From assembly GCA_903813345.2 (NCBI GenBank), contig CAIIXF020000002.1:21464455-21528454 (forward strand): 64,000 nucleotides of DNA, written 5' to 3'. Of the stretch, positions 12,001 to 50,212 are shown piece by piece. How positions within the stretch are numbered: the first letter of the stretch is position 1; the number at the start of each line of letters is the position of its first letter. Position numbers and translations under genes: made by a program. A model generated the notes under the pieces. The model ran no database searches. It worked only from the letters and a program-made list of their open reading frames with translations, and was not told the origin of the DNA. This DNA is from Owenia fusiformis (taxonomy: Eukaryota > Annelida > Polychaeta > Sabellida > Oweniidae).

Positions 12001-13913
12001 ATTTTGTAATGAGACCGCTCAGATTTTTTAAATTAGATTCCTGTCACTTAATCTAGGGACGATTGATCGGATTTACTATTGGAATCACCCCCTCAGTTCA
12101 ATTTAACTTTGTGAATTATTTCAGTATACTATTTGAGGTTTCCCAGACAGTTGAGCATATAAGCCCGAGATCCAGGAATACATATTATCAGATCTTATAC
12201 AAAGCTATTATCACTGCGTTTGAGTGGAATAGAAAATGTCGTATGTTTAATAAGGACATGTCAAATATAAATGACTGAAGATGAATCAAAATGTCAATGA
12301 TAATTACGAGAGTACTATCCTAATATTAATAACCTGATAACCGCGTGTGTGGCAACAGAAAATAGAGGAAAAAACAAGTCAGTGGTACCCGCAGTGGAAC
12401 AAGACCTTAAAGCAGCTTTGTACATTCTTCTGTTCCTTAGATACACAATTAAGTTAATTATAAAGTAAATCAGAATAATCCATAATTTGCACTATCTTTG
12501 TAACAGATATTCTTCTTTGTAATTATTGCAGCTTGAGAGAATTTGTTGCTCACATAGTTAACGAATTCAATATGAACTTTTTTTATGTTATGATATTTTT
12601 AGAAAAGAGATCGATATTCAAAATGCTAATTTAGTTTGGGTATTTTAGAGACAAAGTCCTTTTAAAGTAAGATCCTTGGAAAACAATAGCCTGAAAAACT
12701 AGGGCATAACAAAACTAGCTGGCTTTCTTAACCTATTGCAGAACCAACTCCTTTATAATCCAGACCCTTTACAGAGTCCATGCAAAGTGCATTAACCAAC
12801 GGAAGAAGGGGATGTTTTTATTCGATCAAGATCCCTAATCCTTGACATTTTCAAAACAGAAGTATGCAAGTTGTGGTTTGGTTGAAAATAGGTTAGATTC
12901 TTTTAGAACCAAAACACAGTATGTTCAAAAAGAAAACACCAAATTACATCTTATTTAGTCAACCACACTCTAAGTATAACTGACATAACATTTACCTTTC
13001 AAAAACCACACAACCCTCAAAAATCATTGTTGCCTAAAACATCTCTGTGATCTTTAAGAAAATGCATTCTTTTTTTAGCATGAAACAGGAGTATGAATGC
13101 TAAAATAACTGCATTGTCGACATTATGTCTATTTTCTATAATATTCATAGCTTATCCATCTCTTTCCATTCTACTTTTCATTTCAAAACGCGAGCAAAAT
13201 ATCATTTTCCACGTGGGAAAGTCAATTACCAGACGATTGGGTGATGTTTAAACAGACGTGGAAAAAGATAAAATGCACATACCTAAAATACGAAGTGGCG
13301 GTTTGACATATTAGTTACATAGTTAGTTTCCCATCATTCTGGAGTAAATGTCATCATTTATCTTCCGATCTTTACAACCATAGCTCTTATGATGTAAGAA
13401 CTGACATAATATTATTCTAGTGCAGAAAAACTTCAAATCTTAAGTACCCATGCATAAAGGATTTCATGTTTTAATTTCTAGTAATTTTGTAAATCACCCC
13501 ATTACCCAATTATCATGAGAATTTAAATTCCTTTACATTTGGTGCAAACGAGAAAATCATCATTGGATGCTTCTCATTGATGACCATAAATATACATCAA
13601 TGAATAGTAATTTGGCACCATGGGCTTTTTGGGTGGAATTTAAAGTTCACATAATGACTATTATTTTTTAAAATGCATTTTTCACAAGGTTTAGCGTGTA
13701 GGATCGGCAACAGCGATCATTTTGTACTGTGGAGTTGACATCCAGCTCCCTAAGCGAGATTTGTGAAAAATATGCTTTTTCAACCCCTTGAGGTTTTTAT
13801 CACTGTTAAAGAAATGTGTTTATGTAATTTTAATAAATAAAAATCTTAGCGTCAAAGGCCCTGCGCTTACCATAGTCCTGTATCTACATTTGAATGACAT
13901 TATTGTGCTCCAG
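9024..13913. other. non-coding; probably intron or upstream flank of the CCK-receptor gene
   Basis: The receptor below lacks its N-terminus, TM1 and TM2. Those exons should lie upstream on the plus strand, but I could not find a convincing TM1-TM2 exon here (no recognisable N-x3-V / LAxxD pattern between splice sites), so they may precede the window. Open frames at 10633, 11206, 11546 and 12063 have no family resemblance. Confidence 0.4.
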
Positions 13914-15416
13914 GTATTACATATGGGGTGAGCAGTTTCACTCTGGTGTCTATGTCTATGGAGCGCTACTTCGCCATTGTCCAACCATTGAGGTCGAGAG
14001 GTTGGCAGACGACCTCCCACGCAAGAAAGGTCTGTCTTATTGTATGGGTCCTCGCCGCCATTATTATGATCCCGATCCCGATACATATGAGACACGGCGC
14101 TTTGACGAACGGTGGATATAAGTGTCAGGAGGATTGGCCCCAAGATTTACTCTACCTAAAGAAGGCTTATACTGTGTTCCTGGATATCGTTCTTTTACTA
14201 GTGCCGTTGATAATCATGGTGTTTGCATATAGTTTAATCAGTCGCAGGTTGTGGATGGGAATAAAGTTCGAGGCCAAGACATCCTCAGGTAGGAATTAAT
14301 ATGAACTGAAAAGTTATGAAATTCTAAAATGAATGATCAAGATAGAGTGATGAAATTTGATTGATGAGTCGGCTAAAAAGAATGTCTATAAATTTTTTAA
14401 TCACCCCTCGTATATGTTGGTATTTGTAGTCAGCAAAGCAAAACTTCCTCCATCTTTTTTTCAGTCGACGTACTTGTATATCTTATTTAGCATGAATAGC
14501 CAATACTCGATGCACAATTTTATTCTGTTCCAACCATTTCTGCCACGTTTTTATGTTATGTTAGATTTTATACTTTAATATTAAAGATTAATTAATTTTA
14601 ATTTGATATTAAGAACAATATTTCAAAACGGCAATAAGTCTATTTCCACGACGTAATGGAGCAAAAGCGAAATTTCATTGCCCAGGATTTGATTGTTGCT
14701 CGTTCCGAATACCAAAATACCAAAAGCAGCAATTTGATCTATCGAAGCAGCAGAATTCTTCTTGGGCGCTATTTGACCTACTTTCTGGATACACAAAAAA
14801 TAGATTCAACATATATTTCATTCATGTTTAAATGCTAATTTCAGAGCTACGTAAACTAAACGGCAAACGTGAGCAGGAGCTAAGAGACTCATCTGAAGCT
14901 CTCGTTTCACAGAGTAGTAGTCCCCTCTCGAAATATAGTAGTAAAGATGGGGATCAGTCAAATGGTAGTAAACTCCAAAATGGGTGCAGTTCGTCCAAGA
15001 AAAATGTCAGTAATAAAGACAGTAACAGGACAAGTAGCAATGCAATTCGACAAACGAACTATGAAAGGAGTTTAGCCTCGAAGAAGAGGGTTATCAAAAT
15101 GTTATGTATTGTTGTATTAGAATACTTTTTATTCCTCACACCATCACACGTGGTGAATGCTTGGATCATGTTTGACTATCATGGCGCGAGAGCAGTTCTC
15201 AGTCCAGGAGTTGTGGCGTTACTCAATTTACTTTCCTACTGCACCTCGTTCTGCAACCCAATCACGTACTGTTTCATGCACAAGAGGTTCAGACAAGGGT
15301 TTCTGGATGCATTCCGTTGCCTTGGAAACAAGAATTCCTCGAGGTCAAGGTCAACTCTTCACTCCGGGTACAACTCTTCAACACGCACTCAAACAACGTC
15401 ACTTGTTAGGCATTAG
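13914..15416 (+). CDS. CCKR: cholecystokinin/gastrin-type GPCR, 3' two exons
   Basis: Exon A is 13914-14288 (acceptor CTCCAG, donor CAG/GTAGGA) and exon B 14845-15416 (acceptor TTTCAG, stop TAG). The phase-1 junction rebuilds a GAG codon. Together they encode about 310 residues: the end of TM3 with ERY in place of DRY, ICL2 with SRGWQTTSHA, TM4, a Cys in ECL2 (YKCQED), TM5 ending YSLISRRLW, then GIKFEA, a Ser/Asn-rich ICL3, TM6 and TM7 with NPITY, and a Ser/Thr-rich tail with Cys after FR for possible palmitoylation. The ICL2 and GIKFEA blocks are the hallmarks of CCK/gastrin (sulfakinin) receptors; the exon boundary after TM5 also fits. Expected role: Gq-coupled plasma-membrane receptor for a CCK-like peptide. 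The usual CWxP of TM6 reads FLTP. N-terminus, TM1 and TM2 are missing from the window. Confidence 0.87.
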
Positions 15417-31133: not shown

Positions 31134-31988
31134 TTTAGAAGTTAAATATCACCCTTGGACGTACATTCCATGACAGTGGTGCTATTCCTATTTGAGGTTT
31201 CGGATTCATTGCTGATAAGTAATTTTGTAGGTTGTCGTTTTTTGAAACTTTTTTGTGTATCGCTTTTCAACCATGTCATTTGTGTTCACAGATTGACCGG
31301 TATTTAGATTCGTATACATTTCTTACATTTGGACATCGTTCATTGCGTTGTTTGTTGCTATGGCGTTTCCCATCGTAATTACTGTTGAACTTCTGACAAT
31401 AAATGCAAGAGGGCAATTGCAGATGTAATCTTTGCCTTATGCAAAATAGGTCTTCTCATGCAAGCTTCAATGCTATCATACAACAATTGGAGACAACGGT
31501 TTCAAAGAATTGGACTAAGACAAATGCTCATTCAAAACTTACTACCCCGGTAACTAAGGGAGTGTATTACAAGAATATGTAGTCACGTTACATATGGTTT
31601 ATCTAACTCAAGGGTGGTAATATGGACATTTAGAGCACATGTAGAGGGCAATTTTAGTTTGAATAGAGGCGGATGTCCAAAGATTACCCCAGGTGCTATC
31701 TCTTGTTTGTCGGTCTTAAGTACTTTCGTTTTGATTTGGGATGGTCGGCTGTCCAAATAGTCGACTCTTCAAATAAGCATCATGGTGAAATCCAGGGATG
31801 AATTTAAAATTTGACCACCCTGATTGGTTAGTTGTTCCATATGACTGATGCTGATTGGCCAGACACTTGAGAAAAACGCTCCTCGTTTTAATAGAATATT
31901 GTCTCATATCATAGCGCGCACTTGCAGCTGGTTTGAGGAATCGAATTCATTTTCAATAAAAAAAATTAAAGGACTTTTTTCAAACAAG
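31134..31988. other. intergenic; presumed promoter and 5' UTR of the next gene
   Basis: No gene. The open frame of the following gene reaches back to 31848, but the first 47 codons (including a Lys/Ile-rich stretch) do not look like the mature protein and precede a clear signal-peptide Met. Confidence 0.5.
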
Positions 31989-32699
31989 ATGCGTGGATCG
32001 TCTGCGTGTGTTATCTTTTTGTTATTCTTGTGCATCGGGAAAAGTATTCAGAAACTGAATTTCGTTTATGAAAATGATAAATACATTATCAGAGCCAAAG
32101 CTGGGGCTGACATCGGAGTTCGACTTTTGAAGTTCCATACTGGCGCAAAACCCGAGTTAGACAGGAACGCTGGATATTACGGGTTCACACGTTACGAAAA
32201 AGGACAGGATTTTGGGACAGTTTATATAGTGAAAGATGTGGTTATCAATGCGACTACCCCATGCCCTTGCAGAAACACGGCACATGCACGGGCATTTCGT
32301 TCTGTTACTGAGAATAAATGCCCGAGCGAATTTAACGGACAGGAGAATATCATTGCGTCAGGATTCTGTTATCGCTGGGCGCCTTTCGAAGACGGCAAAT
32401 GGGGGTTCGATTCTGTGACATTTAACTCAGTTAGGTCGATATTCTCCGAAAACTCGTACCTGAATAGACTCTATCATGATGATGACGAGAAAACAATTAT
32501 GCACCCCGATGAACAAGCTATTCTACGTTACTGCATGAAAGAATGGCTGGTCAAAGATTATAATGATTGTTTTGCGTCGAACGCCCGCCATGCCCCTCGG
32601 CCTAGAATTTCGCTGACTTGCGATGGATGCAAACCTGCCTTGCACGTTACTCTGATGCTTCTAACGGGACTGCTAGCTTATTGTTCAAATAAAATTTAG
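31989..32699 (+). CDS. unrecognised secreted or GPI-anchored Cys-rich protein, single exon
   Basis: 236 residues from the ATG at 31989 (context ACAAGATGC). I chose this Met because it begins a clean signal peptide: RGSS then ACVIFLLFLCIGKSIQ. The mature part is hydrophilic with eight or nine cysteines (CPCR, ENKC, SGFC, RYC, DC, LTCDGC), one N-glycosylation site (NAT, about residue 89), and an acidic HDDDE patch. The C-terminus is CDGCKP followed by a hydrophobic run (ALHVTLMLLTGLLAY) and a short tail, which fits a GPI-attachment signal or a single TM. I do not recognise the family. AATAAA (32688-32693) overlaps the last codons; another follows near 33013. No intron visible, so a retrocopy origin is possible. 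Confidence 0.75.
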   Translation: MRGSSACVIFLLFLCIGKSIQKLNFVYENDKYIIRAKAGADIGVRLLKFHTGAKPELDRNAGYYGFTRYEKGQDFGTVYIVKDVVINATTPCPCRNTAHARAFRSVTENKCPSEFNGQENIIASGFCYRWAPFEDGKWGFDSVTFNSVRSIFSENSYLNRLYHDDDEKTIMHPDEQAILRYCMKEWLVKDYNDCFASNARHAPRPRISLTCDGCKPALHVTLMLLTGLLAYCSNKI

Positions 32700-34438: not shown

Positions 34439-34915
34439 TATACGACTAATGGTCATTGCTTTAAACAGTGCCAAGTCTCTCACGTGTGGATGAATTTGCG
34501 CAATATTTCAGACTGAAATTGATTAATACTGTTCCACTTTTTGGACCGCCCTGTATTACGACCAGTGGTCATTGCTATACACAGTGTCAAGTCTCTCACG
34601 CGGGGATAAAGCGCAATACTTCAGAAAATGGAGCAATAAAATAAAATATAAAATAAATATAAAAATGTAAATATAATGTGACAATGCATTTGGACATTAG
34701 TTTTGCTTTGCACTGGCACTCAAGTCGATCGATGGACATGGCTTGACTGATATATATAGCGTGCGTTTCAGTCATGGCATTTTCAAGATCAAGACTTCAA
34801 AATATTGAAAAATATCAACGTTATTAGTTATACGTTGTCATGACACTGTCCAGCAGTATCGAATAAATAATGTCATGCCATCTATTGGTGTTTATTCCAG
34901 TTTTGGCTACATGAC

Positions 34916-35109
34916 CTAGTTTTTTTTCTTCAGATAAATATTCTGATCGGGCTCCCCTTGTTGTGTCAGCCTTAGCTTATTTCGTCGCTCCTTCTCAGCG
35001 AACACAATCACAACGATCCAAACGATGATAGAGAGGTAAAATGTCCCAACGTAGCCGAATAATACATAGTTAACCGACGAATACTGAACTTCGCCCCATT
35101 CTTCAACAT
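34916..35109 (-). CDS. alternative last exon E of the CUB gene (63 residues)
   Basis: Acceptor TTTCCAG, then VEEWGEVQYSSVNYVLFG, a TM segment ending IVWIVVIVF, a basic stop-transfer (EKERR) and a short tail ending in KKKN, which fits the KKXX ER-retrieval pattern. Stop TAG at 34918-34916; AATAAA on the minus strand at 34896-34891. It has the same entry phase as exon D and the same juxtamembrane pattern (EE..xx[IV]QY...NY..FG), so the two are duplicates. Confidence 0.85.
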
Positions 35110-38100
35110 CTGGAAATATTAATTCATATAAAGCATGTTAATTGAAGAATAATGGTTTAAATATGGTAAAGGGTAAGACTGTACTTTCGTTTTGGTACAA
35201 TTCGGCCATTGTAATATTCTTCGCAAACTAAAAAATCAAACTGGAAAAGCATGTTGGAATTGGTATGTCAACTTGTTTTATTAGCCAATGTTAGCATGCA
35301 GAGAGATTAGTTTTTAAACGATAGTTAGTAATGTCAAAACGCAGAATTGCATAACAGAAGACCAAACTTGTTATTTGTAACAGCATAATGGACCTATATC
35401 CGATCAGGTGACATCGTTGGGTGTCAAGGATGATTCTCAAGCATTGTAATTCAGCTACAATTGGTTCAAAGTCGTACATTGTATTTCGTATTCTCGTATC
35501 CTTTAAGATTGACGTAAGACGCCCCTTTCAACCGATCATTCCCACGTTTAAGCCCATGGGGGATAGATAGAAAACTCTATTACCTATATTGAGTTAGGAT
35601 GCATGTTGGTTTTATGACTATTAATATTAGCAGTCAGTGGATGAAGTCAGCAACGCAGTGGACGTCTTATGGATTGCAATTCTTGAAGTCCTCCTTGATA
35701 TTGACTCCAGTCGTTCTAAAATATCTAATTCTGACTTTTGCCTTTGGAGCATGAGTCTTTGTCGTTTTCTAACCGTTCTACCGTTGTCTATACAGACAAA
35801 TGTTATTGTTATAATGAGAGAAATCAGGAGCAGTACACATATACCAAAACATATGTAGTTGGCAAGTCCATATTGAATGTCTTTGAATTCTTCGAACACT
35901 GAAAAGTAAATGGTTAGGATTAGAACATCTAATAAAGTATCATGTAGAAATCAAGTGGGTGGTGTTACGAAATTAAACGAGCTAGGGTGAGTACAAGATA
36001 AGCACTTTTAGCAAACAAAAATAAAAAGACGGCAAGAATGTATTCCAGTAGACGTCTCCATGGTTTTAAGTCAAATGTGAGCACTGGTACTTTTTGGTGT
36101 ACATGTATGGTTAGAAGAAACAGTAAGGTTAATATTAAAATAAACATACATTTCCCAACCTTCAAATTGGAAGTAATTAATATTATTCGTTGGGAGATCG
36201 TGTAAAGGGAAATGCTGTGCAATGATTATTTATGTTAATATGTTAGTAGGTTAATTTAAATATTTGTGAGTTCCAACTCCCAACTAAGTTAATTAACTAG
36301 TTAGTCATTGATTTGCATTCACTCTCTTGTTAAACTCGTACATACGAGAATCAGCCACCGGAAGACAGGCCATCTTGTTACAAAGACACAGTGTCTTTGT
36401 ATCACGATACCTTCCAGTGTCATTGCTGGAAATGTTTACTCACTTTTTGGCATCGTCCAATACTCTAATTCAAAGCCATTGTCTTCAAATTGATTATCAG
36501 CTCGAAATACAACTAAAGCTTCGTTTGAGGAAGAGCTAACGGTGTAAGTTGGGGTATCAAGACCGCATAATTTACGTAGAGTCCTAGAATACAGGCCATC
36601 TCCTGAAAATGAAATAAGGATTTTTATGTTAATGTGTTCATGTGGTTTGAAATGAGATCACCCAGTGGTATGCGTTTAGTACGTGTGTTATTTCCAACTA
36701 TTTTGATTTATCGTACAATGGAACCTTGTCATTGGAACCCATTCAGAACCTCAATTTGTTGTTCCTCTTCGCAATACAATCAGCTTTACTGTACAATCAT
36801 CTTAAATGTACAATCAGCTTTACAGTACAATCATCTTAACTAAAAAAATCAGCTTTACAGTACAATCATCATAACTGTACCATCAGCTTTACAGTATAAT
36901 CAACTTTACTGTACAATAATCTTAACTATACAATCAGCTTTACAGTACAATCATCATAACTGTACAATCAGCTTTACAGTACAATCGTCATAACTGTACA
37001 ATTAGCTTTACAGTACAATTATCTTAACTGTACAATCAGCTTTACAGTACAATCATCATAACTGTACAATCAGCTTTATAGTACAATCATCATAACTGTA
37101 CAATTAGCTTTACAGTACAATTATCTTAACTGTACAATCAGCTTTACAGTACAATCATCATAACTGTACAATCAGCTTTATAGTACAATCATCATAATTG
37201 TACAATCAGCTTCACAGAACAATCATCATAACTGTATAATCAGCTTTACAGTTCGATCACCATAACTGTACAATCAGCTTTACAGTACAATCTTGCCACA
37301 GTCTCTGCTTCCCCTCCCTACCTTTGTTCCACCTTTTGAAGGTGGGGTGTTTGTTGGGGAGACTAGACATTTTGATTTGAGCGAAGTGAACTTGACTTTC
37401 ATACAATCCAGTACTCTAAGTAGTCATTGACCTTGACCTACATACAATCCACTATCTCTAAGTATTCATTGACCTTGACCTGCATACAATCCAGTATCTT
37501 TAAGTAGTCATTGACCTTGACCTATATACAATCAGTATCTCTAAGTATGCATTGACCTTGACCTACATACCATCTAGTATCTCTAAGAAGTCATTGACCT
37601 TGACCTACATACCATCTAGTATCTCTAAGTAGTCATACACACAACTCCCGCTGTCTTGTAGCTTTAAATCTTTAAACCTAAACTGGATCATTTCGTAACT
37701 TTTGTCCGACTTAATTAGCCATTTGCATAGTTGAGCTCTGCAAGTAAAAACATCAATTTAGATAACACACATAAACCATTTTAATCCATAGTTAGCACGA
37801 TATTCATAGGATAACATGTCAAAATAAAAACAGTATTTTTGTAATCAGTGGTAAAATATGATATTTTTGACAAATTTTCACTTAACCATAGCATACGGCT
37901 TTTAAGCCATGACATACGGCGCCGTATGCTATGAATTGTGGATTTTTGCTACTTCAGACTCAAAACGAGGATAAGTGTCAACATCGCCGGTGTAAAAGGG
38001 TAGGGGGTCCAATAAGGGCCTTTAAGAAAGGGGACCATAATCCCCAGGGGACCATAATTTCTTTTACACCGGATCGTTTGGAAAATTCGAATTAAATAAT

Positions 38101-41100
38101 TTCCAACCATCCCAAATCAGAATCCAAAGTGAAAAGAAAGTGTCTGATATCCCCTTTCCCCACCATTCAAGTACCAATACCATAATCAGTGATCGTAACA
38201 CCAAGGGACATTCCATTCAAACTGAAGTCATTGCAATATACGTTAAAGAAAAATTAAAATTGATAGCCAATACTAATAACATTAACAAAAATAGCTATAG
38301 ATACAAGTATTCATACAAGATAGGCTAGATAGAGCACTCAGTTTTAACTGACACGGGAGAAATGGAGTGTTGCATTAGTGTCACTCTGTTCCTTTAGTAG
38401 CTATAATTGCTCTAAAAAGATGGTTACATAAATACATCGATTTTAGCTATAGTACAATTCAAGTGGGATGGTATAGAGTATCTATAGATCCGTAACCCAA
38501 GTATGAGGATATATACCCCTGTATTTAGAAATACATTTAGAAACTAGAAAAACAGCAACTCCACGGAGTAGCAAATCCCACCAAACAAAACATATTTAGA
38601 TTATTAGTGGCCATCTTGAAAATTCCTTCTTGAGCAGAGCTTGTTTGTCCCTAAGCATCAACATATAAAATGTAAACCATATCCATAAATTAAAATTTGA
38701 GTTATCAAAGATTACATTCTTTTTTACTAAAAATGGCGGCCATTTGAAATTCTGCAGTCATTTTGAAAATCTTTCTCGAACAGAGCTATAGTGTCCCTAG
38801 GTATCAGCATATAAAATTTGAATTAAGAAAAATGGCAACCATTTTGAAATTCAGCTGCCATTTTGAAAATTCTTCCTCGAACAGAGCTACTGTGTCCCTA
38901 GGCATTATCCGTTCGCTGGTATTAGAGTATTTGAGTTATCAAAGATTATGTTTTTTTAACGAAAATTGCCGTCATTTTGAAATAAAGCGGCCATCTTGAA
39001 AATTCTTTGTCGAACATAGCAACTGTGTCCATAGGCATCATCATATAAAATTTGAACCAAATTCGTTCAATGGTATATGAGTTATCAAAGATTACGTTTT
39101 TTACGAAAATTGGCCGCCATCTTGAAATTCAGCCTCCATCTTGAAAAAAATTTGTCGAACATAGCTACTGTGTTCCTAAGCATTATCATATAAAATTTGA
39201 ACCAAATCCGTTCACATTTGAGTTATCAAAGATTACATATTTTTACGAAAAATGGCCGCCATTTTTAAATTAAGCGGCCATCTTGAAAATCTCTTTTTGA
39301 GCAAAACTCCTTTGTCCCTAGGGTTCGGCATATAAAATTTGAACCAAATCCGTCAACTTGTATAAGAGTTATCAACGATTACATTTTTTACGAAAAATGG
39401 GGGCCATTTTGAATTGAGCGGCCATATTGAAAATTCCTTCTCGAGCAGAGGTCCTACACTCATAAGGCTATAAAATTTGAACCAAATCCGTCAACCGGTA
39501 TTAGACACACGGACGGACGGACAAACGGACGGACGGACGGCTTCTCCATATCCCCCTCGAACTTCGTTCGGTGGGATAATAAAAGGTACTATTCGAAACA
39601 GTCTCTTAATCGCTCTCGTAAAATTGCCGTATTTATATTTCACTCTACTGTCATTAATCGAGATATAAATGGTATTGTTTGTAAAATTGATTCCCGTGTG
39701 GAGCAATTTTAGAATGTTATTGATCTCGTTTTTCAGTAAAAATGTTATAAAGTTCGCACACACTCGGTACGAAACTTACGGAAATGAATTGGAAGTAACT
39801 GGGTATAGTTGTATTGTTCTGAAATGCAGTCCTAACGTTTAGCATGGGTATCCAATCAAACTTGACCAATAAAATGTTTATCGATTCTAGACTATTCTTC
39901 TCGGGTGAAAATATTATGCTTTTCTTTATAAGACGCAATACAAGATTTGCGTTCGGTGTTTTAATACATTTTTATGTCCGAGAATCGCATGCCATAAAAT
40001 CGCATTTGCTGAAATCACCGATCCCTGGAATCCCTCATCACCCAGGCTTCCAATTCCTGACATTTCGAGAATGCATTTCCACAAATCGAAATTGTTCCAT
40101 ACTGTATTACACATCAGACGGTGTGATACTGCATGCATTTTTTGTATTTTTACAACAATTTTTGATTGTCATCATTGATATACCGTTTTGTATATTGGAT
40201 TAAATCTTTAATAGACTTAGAATCCACCTGTCATTTCAAAATACTAGTAGGAATGAAATATAATGTCATCGTGACATTAATAGCTCTTTGATGCTGTTTC
40301 CATATCGATTCGTATCTCCATTTTCTCGGAGCTATCCTTGCATTCATTAGAACCACCATCCGGGGATTAATTAAGCATGAAAACCCCTCAACCTGAACAA
40401 GACTATATTTCAATCAACATTCTATAGCTAAAACTTCACATCCGTTCTCATAGTAAATAGTAAGTAGTAAAAGTAAGGGCTAATTACCATCGTTGTTTTT
40501 GCTTTTATGGACGGTGGCAGATTGACAATGGGGATATTGTCCAGGGAGGTTAGGCTATCTTACAAAAACTGGCGACGTTTAATGTTACATTTTTACATTT
40601 TGTGAATTCGTGTAAGTTTCGAGATTCCCAAATATAACGTTTAAGGTTGTAGTCTATGGATGAAAATCCAAAAATCTGCCTTTTGAAATGGATTCAATTT
40701 AGGATAAAATCTAGGACCGTATGAATAGATTTATTAACATAATGCAGATACCCAGATTAATCACGCAATGCATTGTTGATAGAGAAAATATCTGCATAAC
40801 GTTTTGGATCGTTTGAGCCCAGATATTTCTCAACATATCACAGTTAGGTTTAAGCCCGAATACCTAACAGGCCTTTCTATAACCATTTGTTTTGTACGGC
40901 GTGGAGTATTTTATCATGCATCATATTGTAATACTCACGCTTCATAATTGGAAGGATAATTTGGGGATGAGATCGTTTGTACTTCTGACGTTCCTTGTAG
41001 GGTCACCTTATCTGACGGACATTTGATCCCTAAAAACATACAATACATCTGTAAGTATAGAGTTTCGGAGTAGTCTTGCTTAAACGACTCTGTACCCCCC

Positions 41101-42209
41101 CCCTTATCCTTCTCTCTGTATATTGCCTGGTAAAGAGAGTGAAGGTGAAGGGGGGGGGGGGGGGGGTGGATACAGTCTTTGAGCAAGACTAGTTTCGGAG
41201 ATGCTAAAACGACAACTTTTGAATCCTGTAACAACTGTATATTCGTTATCAAGTTGTTTTTAATCTATAATGGCAAGTTATATATATTATATCATACAAA
41301 ATAGAGACATTTATGTCAAACCCAACCCACTTTGGATTTATCAACCACTTATAATGTTTAATTGATTACAAAATATAAATATTAAGAAATTCCTTCTTCA
41401 TAAATCAAATATCGTCTCCTTATGATTTTTATTTAAAAGGTTTATAAAAAATTTTAGTTCTATTAAGTCATCAGCAAATGACCAAGATCTTTCTTCAGGT
41501 TAAAAGCCAAAAGTTTGAATTTGATTTTTCTTCAATCACATCACATTTGTTCGGAAATGGTAAATTATGGTTTTAATCGCTGAGCACGCTTTATTTTAAC
41601 AAGTTTATTCGATATGTTTCTAAACTTTTTAAGGGGAGTTTATTTATTACGAAAACTCCGGAAGGTTGGACCGATCTTAACCTTGAGCTTTGAGTTCCTC
41701 CATTGGAACACTTGTTAGAGATAAGTCAGGTAATTTTGCAAAATGATAAAATATATAAGTATGACCGTGTTTGATGAACTTCTTAACAAATGATATGTGA
41801 TATGTCATTTTGAAGTGACAACACCTGAAAATTTGACATTCACCCTGGCCGGGACTTTCACCTTTGATACATTTCCCACACCTATACAATCATTTACTAT
41901 CTGAGGCCCAGGAATACGTTATAAATTGTTCAAAAGTGGTATAGGACAATGTCAGTCTAAGCTTCTTGCTTCACTTATATGCAGGAGGAAAATATCCATG
42001 ATTCAAGTGAATCTACAAAATATTATAAAAACGCAGATTTACCCAGGGGGCGATTCTAGGCCCTCTACTGTTTGTGAATTACATTCCCGACCTGGCGACA
42101 ATTTGAATGTATACAATTTGAAATGACACTAAGTGTACTTACCTGTACAAAGATACACAAGCTCGCCTAGAATTGTGGCAAGAAGTGTGAGGTGATTGCC
42201 TAGGTTCAT
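34916..42209 (-). CDS. single-pass CUB-domain membrane protein with alternative last exons
   Basis: Coding exons on the minus strand: 42209-42143 (signal peptide MNLGNHLTLLATILGEL), 41029-40939, 37737-37613 and 36602-36444 (one CUB domain in three pieces), then either 35898-35627 or 35109-34916. All junctions are GT-AG and phase-consistent (1, 2, 1, 1). The CUB hallmarks are CPSDKVTLQG, ISSPNYPSNYEA, LCKWLI, DYLEILDG, LCG and FEDNGFELEYW, with four Cys for two disulfides. The Y/D/D positions associated with calcium in CUB domains are partly present (DYLEI; DNGFE). Isoforms are 237 and 211 residues. A type I surface protein is expected; ligand unknown. Introns are packed with minisatellites and transposons. 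Confidence 0.88.
35627..35898 (-). CDS. alternative last exon D of the CUB gene (89 residues)
   Basis: Acceptor ACTTTTCAG, then FEEFKDIQYGLANYICFG, TM segment through LIITITFVCI, and a 55-residue basic, Ser/Thr-rich tail (NGRTVRKRQR; LDILERLESISRRTSR). Stop TAA at 35629-35627. A minus-strand AATAAA at 35282-35277 lies between D and E and could end the D isoform. Upstream of E in transcription order, so isoform choice would be exon skipping against early polyadenylation. Confidence 0.87.
36775..37292. repeat. ~34-bp minisatellite in the CUB gene
   Basis: About 15 copies of AACTGTACAATCAGCTTTAC / AGTACAATCATCAT in the intron between CUB exons 36602 and 37613. Copies alternate in a ~100-bp higher-order pattern marked by the ATTAGC and ATTATCTT variants. 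Confidence 0.93.
37389..37630. repeat. 42-bp tandem repeat copying the end of CUB exon 3 and its splice donor
   Basis: Five to six units of CATTGACCTTGACCTACATAC / ATCYAGTATCTCTAAGTAGT (plus-strand view). The unit nearest 37613 is the real exon end: on the minus strand ACTTAGAGATACTAGATG is coding and GTATGTAGG is the donor. The next unit (donor at 37570-37569) repeats TTAGAGATACTAGATG/GTATGTAG intact. Confidence 0.9.
37889..38075. repeat. two small palindromes
   Basis: ATAGCATACGG / CCGTATGCTAT at 37889-37932, and a MITE-like pair CCGGTGTAAAAG / CTTTTACACCGG spanning about 37985-38071 with an inner GGGGACCATAAT direct repeat. Both in a CUB intron. Confidence 0.75.
38544..39580. mobile_element. 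1.0-kb element of YY1-motif units, copy 1 (CUB intron)
   Basis: Begins CTAGAAAAACAGCAACTCC, then AGTAGCAAATCCCACC; ends CTCGAACTTCGTTCGGTGGG ATAAT after a GGAC microsatellite. In between are ~7 diverged ~146-bp units with GCGGCCATCTTGAAAAT, ACTGTGTCCCTAGGCAT, ATATAAAATTTGAACCAAAT and GAGTTATCAAAGATTACAT. Same organisation as 48478-50212. Confidence 0.88.
41068..41200. mobile_element. 133-bp inverted-repeat element near CUB exon 2
   Basis: TAGTCTTGCTTAAACGACTCTG at the left mirrors CAGTCTTTGAGCAAGACTA at the right; the inside has a C-run and a long G-run. It ends 39 bp upstream (in transcription) of exon 41029-40939. Confidence 0.8.
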
Positions 42210-42226
42210 GTTGCACTCTCTGGCAT
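42206..42226 (-). promoter_or_regulatory. 7-codon uORF overlapping the CUB start codon
   Basis: In the 5' UTR part of the first coding exon (which starts at 42229 after a CAG acceptor), ATG at 42226-42224 opens a 6-residue frame whose TGA (42208-42206) overlaps the main ATG (42209-42207) as ATGA. This arrangement can favour or limit reinitiation at the main start. Confidence 0.65.
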
Positions 42227-42231
42227 ACTCT

Positions 42232-44280: not shown

Positions 44281-45180
44281 CCTGTCACTACTTAAAAATA
44301 TGTCACTCAACAATTGTGTAACCATTCACTACCAAGTAATATGTGACTCAACAAATTGGTCACCACTTACTACATAGAAATGTGCCATTCAACAATGGTA
44401 AAGCCATTCACTACCTAGAAATATGTCACTCAAAAATTGTGTCACCACTCACTAAGTTTAAATGTGTCACTCAACAATTGTGGCACCCTCACTACGTTAA
44501 AATGTGTCACTCAACGATTGTTTAAAGCCCACTACGTATAAATATGTCACTCAACAATTGTGTCACAACTCAATACGTTGAAATGTGTCACCCAACGATT
44601 GTATAACCCCACTACGTATAAATATGTCACTCAACAATTGTGTCACTACTCAATACGTTGAAATATGTCACTCAACAATTGTGTCACTACTCAATACGTT
44701 GAAATATGTCACTCAACGATTGTATAAAACCCACTACGTATAAATATGTCACTCAACAATTGTGTAAAACTCACTACGTTTAAATATGTCACTCAACAAT
44801 TGCGTCACCACTCACTTCGTTTGGTTATGTCACTCAACAATTGTGCCACTCCTCAATATGTTGAAATATGTCACTCAACGATTGTATAAAACTCACTAAG
44901 TATAAATATGTCGCTCGACAATTGTGTCACCACTCACCACGTACAAGTATAAATATGTCACTCAACAATTGTGCCACTACTCAATATGTTGAAATATGTC
45001 ACTCAACGATTGTATAAAACTCACTACATGTAAGTATAAATATGTCACTCAACAATTGTGTCATAACTCACCACGTACAAGTATAAATATGTCACTCAAC
45101 AATTGCGTCACGACTCAATACATTGAAATATGTCACTCGACAATTGTGTCATAACTCACTACGTATAAATATCAAATGTG
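44281..45180. repeat. ~45-bp minisatellite, ATGTCACTCAACAATTGTGT
   Basis: About 19 units of AAATATGTCACTCAACAATTGTG plus TCACTACTCAATACGTTG or TAAAACTCACTACGTATA, with CAATTGT/CGATTGT variants alternating in a higher-order pattern. Continues as a diverged GGTGACATGTCACTTGAAATT set to about 45370. No coding. Confidence 0.93.
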
Positions 45181-48477: not shown

Positions 48478-50212
48478 CTAGAAAAACAGCAACTCCACGG
48501 AGTAGCAAATCCCACCGAACAAAACATATCATGCTTATTATAGCTAGTGTAAATGTTGAAATGTTTGTGCACTTTGAGATAGAAGCATGAAATTTGGCAC
48601 AAAGTTAGTTTATACCATTGTGAACTAGGCATCATCATATAAAATTTGAACCAAATCCGTTAACTGGTATATGAGTTATCAAAGATTACGTTTTTTACGA
48701 ATATGGGCCGCCATCTTGAAATTCAGCCGCCATCTTGAAAATTATTTCTTGAACAGAGCTACTGTGTCCCTAGGCATAATCATATAAAATTTCAATCAAA
48801 TCTGTTCACTGGTATTTGAGTTATCAAAGATTACGTTTTTTACGAAAAATTGCCGCCATTTTGAAATTAAGCGGCCATCTTGAAAATCTCTTTTTGTGCG
48901 AACATAGCTACTGTGTCCCTAATAATCATCATATAAAATTTGAACCAAATCCGTTCACTGGTATTTTAGTTATCAAAGATTACATATTTTTACGAAAAAT
49001 GGCCGCTATTTTGAAATTAAGCGGCCATCTTGAAAATCTCTTTTTGTGCGAAACTCCTTTGTCCCGACGCATCAGCATATAAAATTTGAACCAAATTCGT
49101 TCACTGGTATATGAGTTATCAAAGATTACGTTTTTTACGAATATGGGCCGCCATCTTGAAATCCAGCCGCCATCTTGAAAATCATTTCTTGAACAGAGCT
49201 ACTGTGTCCCTAGGCATAATCATATAAAATTTCAATAAAATCTGTTCACTGGTATTTGAGTTATCAAAGATTACGTTTTTTTACAAAAAATTGCCGCCAT
49301 TTTGAAATTAAGCGGCCATCTTGAAAATGTTTTGTCGAACATAGCTACTGTGTCCCTAATAATCATCATATAAAATTTGAACCAAATCCGTTCACTTGTA
49401 TTTGAGTTATCAAAGATTACATATTTTTACGAAAAATGGCCGCCACTTTGAAATTAAGCAGCCATCTTGAAAATCTCTTTTTGTGCGAAACTCCTATGTC
49501 CCTAGGCATCAGCATATAAAATTTGAACCAAATCCGTTCACTGGTATATGAGTTATCAAAGATTACGTCTTTTAAGGAATTTGGGCAGCCATCTTGAAAT
49601 TCAGCCGCCATCTTGAAAATTATTTCTTGAACAGAGCTACTGTGTCCCTAGGCATAATCATATAAAATTTCAACCAAATCTGTTCACTGGTATTTGAGTT
49701 ATCAAAGATTACGTTTTTTACGAAAAATTACCACCATTTTGAAATTAAGCGGCCATCTTGAAAATGTTTTGTCGCACATACCTACTGTGTCCCTAAGCAT
49801 CATCATATAAAATTTGAACCAAATCCGTTCACTGGTATTTGAGTTATCAAAGATTACATATTTTTACGAAAAATGGCCGCCATTTTGAAATTAAGCGGCC
49901 ATCTTGAAAATCTCTTTTTGTGCGAATTTCCTTTGTCCCTAGGCATCAGCATATAAAATTTGAACCAAATCCGCAAACTAGTATTTGAGTTATTAAAGAT
50001 TACATTTTTACGAAAAATGGCGGCCATTTTGAATTCAGTGGCCATATTGAAAATTCCTTCTCGAGCAGAGGTCCTACACCCATAAGGCATAAGCCTATAA
50101 AATTTGAATCAAATCCGTGAAACGGTATTTGAGTTATCGCCCGGACAAACAGACGGACGGACGGACGGACGGCTTTCCTATATCCCTCTCGAACTTCGTT
50201 CGGTGGGATAAT
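48478..50212. mobile_element. 1.7-kb element of ~146-bp YY1-motif units, copy 2
   Basis: Same ends as 38544-39580: CTAGAAAAACAGCAACTCC and AGTAGCAAATCCCACCGAAC at the left; GGAC microsatellite, then CTCGAACTTCGTTCGGTGGG at the right (ATCCCACCGAAC and GTTCGGTGGGAT are inverted subterminal repeats). The inside is about 11 units; the anchor ATAAAATTT recurs near 48639, 48785, 48934, 49080, 49228, 49372, 49519, 49664, 49808, 49950 and 50098. Units alternate between two subtypes. Each has GCCGCCATCTTGAAA or GCGGCCATCTTGAAA. The plus and minus open frames here are repeat shadows. Confidence 0.92.

What the first reader, a model, noticed from the sequence alone, without database searches (positions are those of the whole stretch)
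34916..35898. Duplicated alternative terminal exons swap the membrane anchor and cytoplasmic tail of a CUB protein
Exons D (35898-35627) and E (35109-34916) enter in the same phase from exon 36602-36444, both give whole-codon CDS lengths (714 and 636 bases), and share a juxtamembrane pattern (EE-x3-[IV]QY-x3-NY-x2-FG) followed by a TM. Their tails differ completely: D has a long basic Ser/Thr-rich tail, E a short tail ending KKKN, which fits an ER-retrieval signal. A minus-strand AATAAA (35282-35277) lies between them. One ectodomain would thus be delivered with two different cytoplasmic outputs or locations. Exon structure and similarity are read directly; regulation and localisation are inferred.
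Basis: partly seen in the sequence, partly recalled or inferred. Interest (0 to 1): 0.82.

Follow-up and report, generated by a model that had tools for sequence, protein, structure and literature searches.

The report
CUB gene with duplicated last exons
A small gene carries two related copies of its final exon, so one outer protein part could be fixed in the membrane by either of two anchors with different tails; this looks real but is a known way for genes to make variants.

Summary
A minus-strand gene (coding exons 42209-42143, 41029-40939, 37737-37613, 36602-36444) encodes a probable signal peptide and one CUB domain, followed by two possible last exons, D (35898-35627) and E (35109-34916). 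Both enter in phase 1, give CDS of 714 and 636 bases, and encode stalk, membrane helix and basic tail. D and E are paralogous: E is first of 6264 AG sites outside D in its match to D, and no shuffle reaches the D-E score. Genome searches list no other copy of either. Best reading: an old tandem duplication of the last exon, used as alternative last exons; splicing could not be tested. The ER-retrieval idea is weak: a dilysine end arises by chance in 0.7-5%, and D has an arginine motif of ER-retention type (recalled). New: a third acceptor at 35227, richer in pyrimidines than that of E, opens a short frame resembling D without its helix; a soluble ending or a relic. The kind is known (Neto, Dscam exon 17, human C-terminal exon swaps).

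The parts
42143..42229 (-). First coding exon: ATG at 42209, 67 coding bases, MNLGNHLTLLATILGELVYLCTG (probable signal peptide). The acceptor-like TTTTCAG|AGTATG at 42229 suggests an earlier non-coding exon, not located
   Evidence: signal peptide judged from hydropathy only
40939..41029 (-). Coding exon 2, start of the CUB domain
37613..37737 (-). Coding exon 3, middle of the CUB domain; its 3' end and 5' splice site are the first unit of a 42-base tandem array
36444..36602 (-). Coding exon 4, end of the CUB domain; common donor AAAAA|GTGAGT
35627..35898 (-). Last exon D: stalk, transmembrane helix, basic Ser/Thr-rich tail of about 55 residues, stop
35277..35282 (-). AATAAA between D and E; candidate poly(A) signal for D
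   Evidence: chance level 0.32
35157..35227 (-). Candidate third ending F: acceptor TTTTTTAG|TTTGCGAAGAA, frame ICEEYYNGRIVPKRKYSLTLYHI then TAA; no transmembrane helix
34916..35109 (-). Last exon E: stalk, transmembrane helix, tail of about 27 residues ending KKKN, stop
34891..34896 (-). AATAAA within 20 bases of the E stop; candidate poly(A) signal for E (and F)

Best explanation
This is a gene for a small type I membrane protein with one CUB domain, whose last exon was duplicated in tandem long ago. The common donor at 36444 joins either to D, which ends at a poly(A) site after 35282, or, when D is skipped, to E, which ends just after 34896. The ectodomain is therefore put on one of two related membrane anchors. 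The stalk and the start of the helix are kept alike in both, perhaps because they pack against the CUB domain or a partner; the distal tail is what is exchanged, giving different cytoplasmic contacts or traffic. Shown: gene structure as open spliced frames, phases, CUB domain, D-E homology, codon-level constraint. Inferred: use of both junctions, poly(A) sites, membrane topology, the role of the tails.
For: CUB by Pfam, E 1.2e-24, 87.1 bits against a cut-off of 21.4. Both CDS open and whole. D-E similarity far above chance and first of 6264 AG sites. Over 37 codons in register the differences at positions 1, 2 and 3 are 20, 15 and 28; positions 1+2 against 3 gives Fisher p 0.0048; for the 18 codons of stalk and helix start 6, 6 and 12, p 0.040. 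Six of 11 shared residues use a different codon. So third positions have changed heavily while both frames stay open with a helix (19-residue hydropathy maxima 2.94 for D, 2.36 for E) and positive charges on the inner side. Only 475 of 18232 sampled starts in the window stay open for 63 codons.
Against: No RNA evidence for either junction and no relative to show that the pair is conserved. At genome scale the D query finds itself and one match at E 1.96, the E query only itself, so the homology rests on the local tests. By pyrimidine count the E acceptor is weak: 9 of 17, a value that 1527 of 3011 YAG sites in the window reach, against 13 for D. Codon scoring does not separate E (58 of 523 null stretches score as high) or D (125 of 523) from open non-coding DNA, and for both exons another frame scores as high or higher than the coding one; three other exons of the gene do no better (95-102 of 523) and two likely genes only somewhat better (27 and 34 of 523), so that test lacks power. 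An in-phase acceptor with 54 open codons and no noted homology exists at 35454, so an open frame alone is not rare here.
Confidence: 0.66

Rival explanations
1. E is a dying duplicate: an old copy of the last exon that was used once and is no longer spliced; D is the only working ending.
For: Weak E acceptor by pyrimidine count; a richer acceptor, F, lies 118 bases upstream and would turn E into 3' UTR; codon usage of E is not distinctive.
Against: Third positions heavily changed yet frame, helix, charge pattern and stalk motif are intact; an AATAAA sits within 20 bases of the E stop, which 2.6% of random points would show.
Confidence: 0.2
2. The locus makes three or more endings: D and E membrane-bound, and a soluble form from acceptor F (35227) or from reading on past the donor at 36444 (PKSE then stop). 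This adds to the best explanation rather than excluding it.
For: F begins ICEEYY and goes on NGRIVPKRK, matching the start (FEEF) and the post-helix part (NGRTVRKRQ) of D in one frame; it is first of 3328 AG sites in a two-block score (40; E 31; next 29), and 0 of 3000 shuffles of the 1062 bases of intervening DNA reach it. Acceptor F has 13 of 17 pyrimidines. Over 12 bases on each side of the acceptor, F is the best of 6275 sites against D, 19 of 24. Read-through after the donor gives SE and a stop.
Against: The score was devised after the match was seen; 1 of 25 one-strand shuffles of the whole window reaches it. In the other three DNA windows tried F ranks 2, 18 and 5 against D, and 54 to 185 against E. 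F may be a relic with its helix deleted. The read-through form has no support beyond the open donor.
Confidence: 0.25
3. The D-E likeness is convergence on a stalk motif beside a hydrophobic helix, not duplication.
For: Hydrophobic helices resemble each other by composition; BLAST E-values within the window are only 0.008 and 0.03.
Against: Shuffling within stalk, helix and tail separately gives 0 of 20000; the match is in register from the splice site, same phase, adjacent, same strand.
Confidence: 0.04

Closest known systems
Drosophila Neto-alpha / Neto-beta (PMC4408064, passages seen)
   Same: CUB-domain membrane protein; alternative 3' exons give one ectodomain two different cytoplasmic domains
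   Different: In Neto the first ten exons, membrane part included, are shared and the alternative exons code for the cytoplasmic domains; Neto has two CUB domains and an LDLa domain. Here stalk and helix lie in the swapped exon and the two exons are homologous
Dscam exon 17 in insects (PMC1397879, passages seen)
   Same: Two tandem variants of the exon that corresponds to the transmembrane domain
   Different: Exon 17 is one of 24 and internal, spliced in a mutually exclusive way; here the exons are terminal, each with its own stop, so the distal tail changes too
Human tandem-duplicated exon substitutions at C-termini (PMC9741552, passages seen)
   Same: 77 of 236 human events swap homologous C-terminal regions; [quoted passage not shown]
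   Different: Other genes, with transcript annotation; this one has none here
Drosophila CULD (PMC4732287, passages seen)
   Same: Membrane protein with one CUB domain and one predicted transmembrane part; acts in endocytic traffic
   Different: Has an LDLa domain; no duplicated last exon in the passages seen
Cystinosin-LKG (PMC4858208, start of abstract in search listing)
   Different: Whether its alternative ends are homologous was not looked at

Membership tests
CUB domain (PF00431) | Match over the curated cut-off across the domain | tested here: met
   E 1.2e-24, 87.1 bits against 21.4, profile positions 6-110 of 110; best solved chains are cubilin and neuropilins
Tandem-duplicated C-terminal exon substitution | Adjacent homologous exons on one strand | tested here: met
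Tandem-duplicated C-terminal exon substitution | Same entry phase and open frame to own stop | tested here: met
Tandem-duplicated C-terminal exon substitution | Both exons used, as alternatives, in transcripts | not testable with these tools
   no RNA data held
Mutually exclusive exons in the strict sense | Internal exons | tested here: not met
   D and E both carry in-frame stops and are terminal; [quoted passage not shown]
NETO family | Two CUB domains and an LDLa domain before the membrane helix | tested here: not met
   Pfam scan up to E 1 lists one CUB and no LDLa in either isoform; family features from PMC4408064
Dilysine (KKXX) ER-retrieval cargo | Lys at -3 and at -4 or -5 of a cytosolic C-terminus | tested here: met
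   KKKN end; chance 0.7-5%; motif recalled; cytosolic side inferred
Dilysine (KKXX) ER-retrieval cargo | Retrieval from Golgi to ER in cells | not testable with these tools
   needs an experiment

The most novel reading that the evidence does not exclude
One ancestral last exon has given rise to three endings of the same CUB ectodomain: D (membrane, long regulated tail), E (membrane, short tail, kept inside the cell) and F (soluble, helix deleted but tail-derived sequence kept), chosen by competition between acceptors and poly(A) sites. A secreted form of the same gene could then act as decoy or ligand for its own membrane forms.
Probability: 0.15. Interest if true: 0.55.

Novelty: new member of a known kind. 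Interest (0 to 1): 0.33.

Why it matters
If both endings are used, this is a compact natural case (about 1.7 kb from the common exon to the end of E) of one binding domain being given two membrane anchors by last-exon duplication, with the outer stalk kept and the distal tail freed. If the third ending F is real, the locus would show a step from membrane to soluble form by loss of the helix inside a duplicated exon. The mechanism class itself is well known.

Tried and rejected
Other genome copies: the D search lists itself and one match at E 1.96, the E search only itself (the tool scores only its best candidates). Paralogous CUB genes that might carry the same exon pair: apart from the gene itself, 9 of 10 matches for exon 37737-37613 (best E 0.026) and 6 of 7 for exon 36602-36444 (best E 0.015) are weak; none was followed. 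Codon usage trained on the longest frame in each of 14 GPCR loci (6500 codons): too weak to judge short exons, and the coding frame of D or E is not the best-scoring one (an earlier run, read only 1 of the 14 loci and is not used). Structure prediction of the D isoform from one sequence: mean pLDDT 55, not used, no fold search made. Amphipathic helix in the D tail: 488 of 5000 shuffles reach the moment. DNA likeness between D and E, as a recent duplication would show: the repeat search lists no direct repeat of 14 bases or more joining D with E. The MAFFT alignment matched the overlapping E and F stretches with each other and says nothing on F. Literature searches on CUB genes with alternative ends and on duplicated terminal exons gave, in capped lists, nothing closer than Neto and CULD.

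Full report
The species was not identified; that it is an animal is inferred from intron-bearing CUB and many rhodopsin-type GPCR genes.

Gene. Read from the minus strand, the gene has coding exons 42209-42143 (67 coding bases), 41029-40939, 37737-37613 and 36602-36444, with GT/AG borders, and then D (35898-35627) or E (35109-34916). The two spliced frames are whole: 714 and 636 bases. The product has a probable signal peptide (judged by hydropathy only) and one CUB domain (Pfam E 1.2e-24), with cubilin and neuropilin chains as best solved matches. Pfam finds no other domain over its cut-off in either isoform.

Homology of D and E. The first 19 residues, MFEEFKDIQYGLANYICFG and NVEEWGEVQYSSVNYVLFG, share 8. 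The local score of the whole exons is 66; 0 of 20000 full shuffles and 0 of 20000 segment-wise shuffles reach it. Against all 6264 AG sites outside D on both strands, translated in the phase of D, E is first by local and by in-register score; the best sites not inside E have 45 and 18 against 66 and 50. The repeat search lists no direct repeat of 14 bases or more joining D with E, and 28 of 37 third positions differ, against 35 of 74 first and second (Fisher p 0.0048). The duplication thus looks old, with both copies under protein-level constraint for much of the time since; a recent loss of use of E cannot be excluded. The alignment runs into the membrane-proximal basic part of the tails, so the tails are not wholly unrelated.

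Results against. In the whole genome the D query finds itself and one match at E 1.96, the E query only itself; the similarity is too short to be found at that scale. The E acceptor has 9 pyrimidines of 17, a value that 1527 of 3011 YAG sites in the window reach; D has 13 (111 of 3011). Codon scores do not single out E (58 of 523 null stretches as high) or D (125 of 523); for E another forward frame and a reverse frame score higher than the coding one, for D one forward frame ties and a reverse frame is higher. The other exons of the gene stand at 95-102 of 523, with one synonymous-only score standing out (11 of 523 for exon 37737-37613) and one poor (443 of 523 for exon 36602-36444); two likely genes of the window stand at 34 and 27 of 523. 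The test has little power. A further acceptor at 35454 opens 54 codons in phase.

Third ending. Between D and E, at 35227, TTTTTTAG is followed by an in-phase frame ICEEYYNGRIVPKRKYSLTLYHI and TAA at 35159-35157. Its start matches the start of D (FEEF) and its body the part of D just after the helix (NGRTVRKRQ; one search had listed that piece at E 24). In a two-block score F is first of the 3328 AG sites with at least 10 open codons (40; E 31; next 29); 11 sites match its first block as well and 5 its second, none other both. None of 3000 shuffles of the 1062 intervening bases reaches 40 (maximum 38), but 1 of 25 one-strand whole-window shuffles does. In DNA around the acceptor, against D, F ranks 2, 18, 1 and 5 of 6275 sites in the four windows tried (0/+12, 0/+15, -12/+12, -15/+15); against E it ranks 54 to 185. 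The score was made after the match was seen. F would give a 170-residue precursor without membrane helix (513-base CDS). I hold it as a candidate: relic or soluble ending. A retained intron after 36444 would also end the protein, after SE, and an acceptor inside D at 35787 would skip the helix in phase; neither has further support.

Tails. The D tail of 55 residues has net charge +6 and 13 Ser/Thr; the E tail of 27 has +4 and one (borders chosen by eye). E ends KKKN, the KKXX form (recalled). Shuffles of the E tail give a dilysine end in 5.3%; 8 of 1137 open stretches in the window have one. D contains VRKR, a form also linked to ER retention, RRTS, a protein kinase A form, and ends TDC (meanings recalled). 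So a difference in location is possible but not indicated one way.

Poly(A) signals. AATAAA at 35282 lies within 346 bases of the D stop; 32% of random minus-strand points have one as near. The one at 34896 lies within 20 bases of the E stop; 2.6% do.

Known kind. Drosophila Neto swaps cytoplasmic domains below a shared CUB ectodomain and shared membrane part (PMC4408064, passages). Dscam exon 17 has two variants of the membrane segment (PMC1397879, passages). [quoted passage not shown] The present locus joins these features and belongs to the same class. The capped listings showed no report of this gene; as the species is unknown, a transcript record may exist elsewhere.

Verdict: observation confirmed, alternative last exons by tandem duplication likely, regulation and ER retrieval unproved, a possible third soluble ending added.

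Noticed in passing
37387-37636 (minus strand): The end of exon 37737-37613 and its 5' splice site are the first unit of a 42-base tandem array of 6.0 copies (88% matches). Six GT sites stand at the matching place of the units, the first two with identical preceding 10 bases; reading past the first donor meets a stop at once.
   Followed up: partly
42206-42226 (minus strand): A six-codon upstream ORF (ATG CCA GAG AGT GCA ACA TGA) overlaps the start codon of the CUB gene in the form ATGA.
   Followed up: no
35787 (minus strand): An AG inside exon D would, if used, skip stalk and helix and keep the D tail in phase (NNGRTVRKRQ...), giving another soluble form.
   Followed up: no
35110-35132 and 35611-35633: Inverted pair of 23 bases, 74% complementary, linking the stretch just before the E acceptor with the D stop region; could fold, may be chance.
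   Followed up: no
36775-37292; 38927-39434; 44285-45172; 48625-50138: Large tandem arrays with periods 34, 145, 41 and 146; the 145 and 146 arrays share a unit containing GGCCGCCATTTT.
   Followed up: no
31845-32699 (plus strand): Open frame of 284 codons; from an ATG inside it 236 residues with hydrophobic stretches at both ends and no Pfam match up to E 0.1.
   Followed up: partly
13898-15416 (plus strand): Rhodopsin-type GPCR gene in at least two pieces: PF00001 at E 4.9e-26 for 13898-14299; the second frame, 14832-15416, looks like the rest of it but was not scanned.
   Followed up: partly
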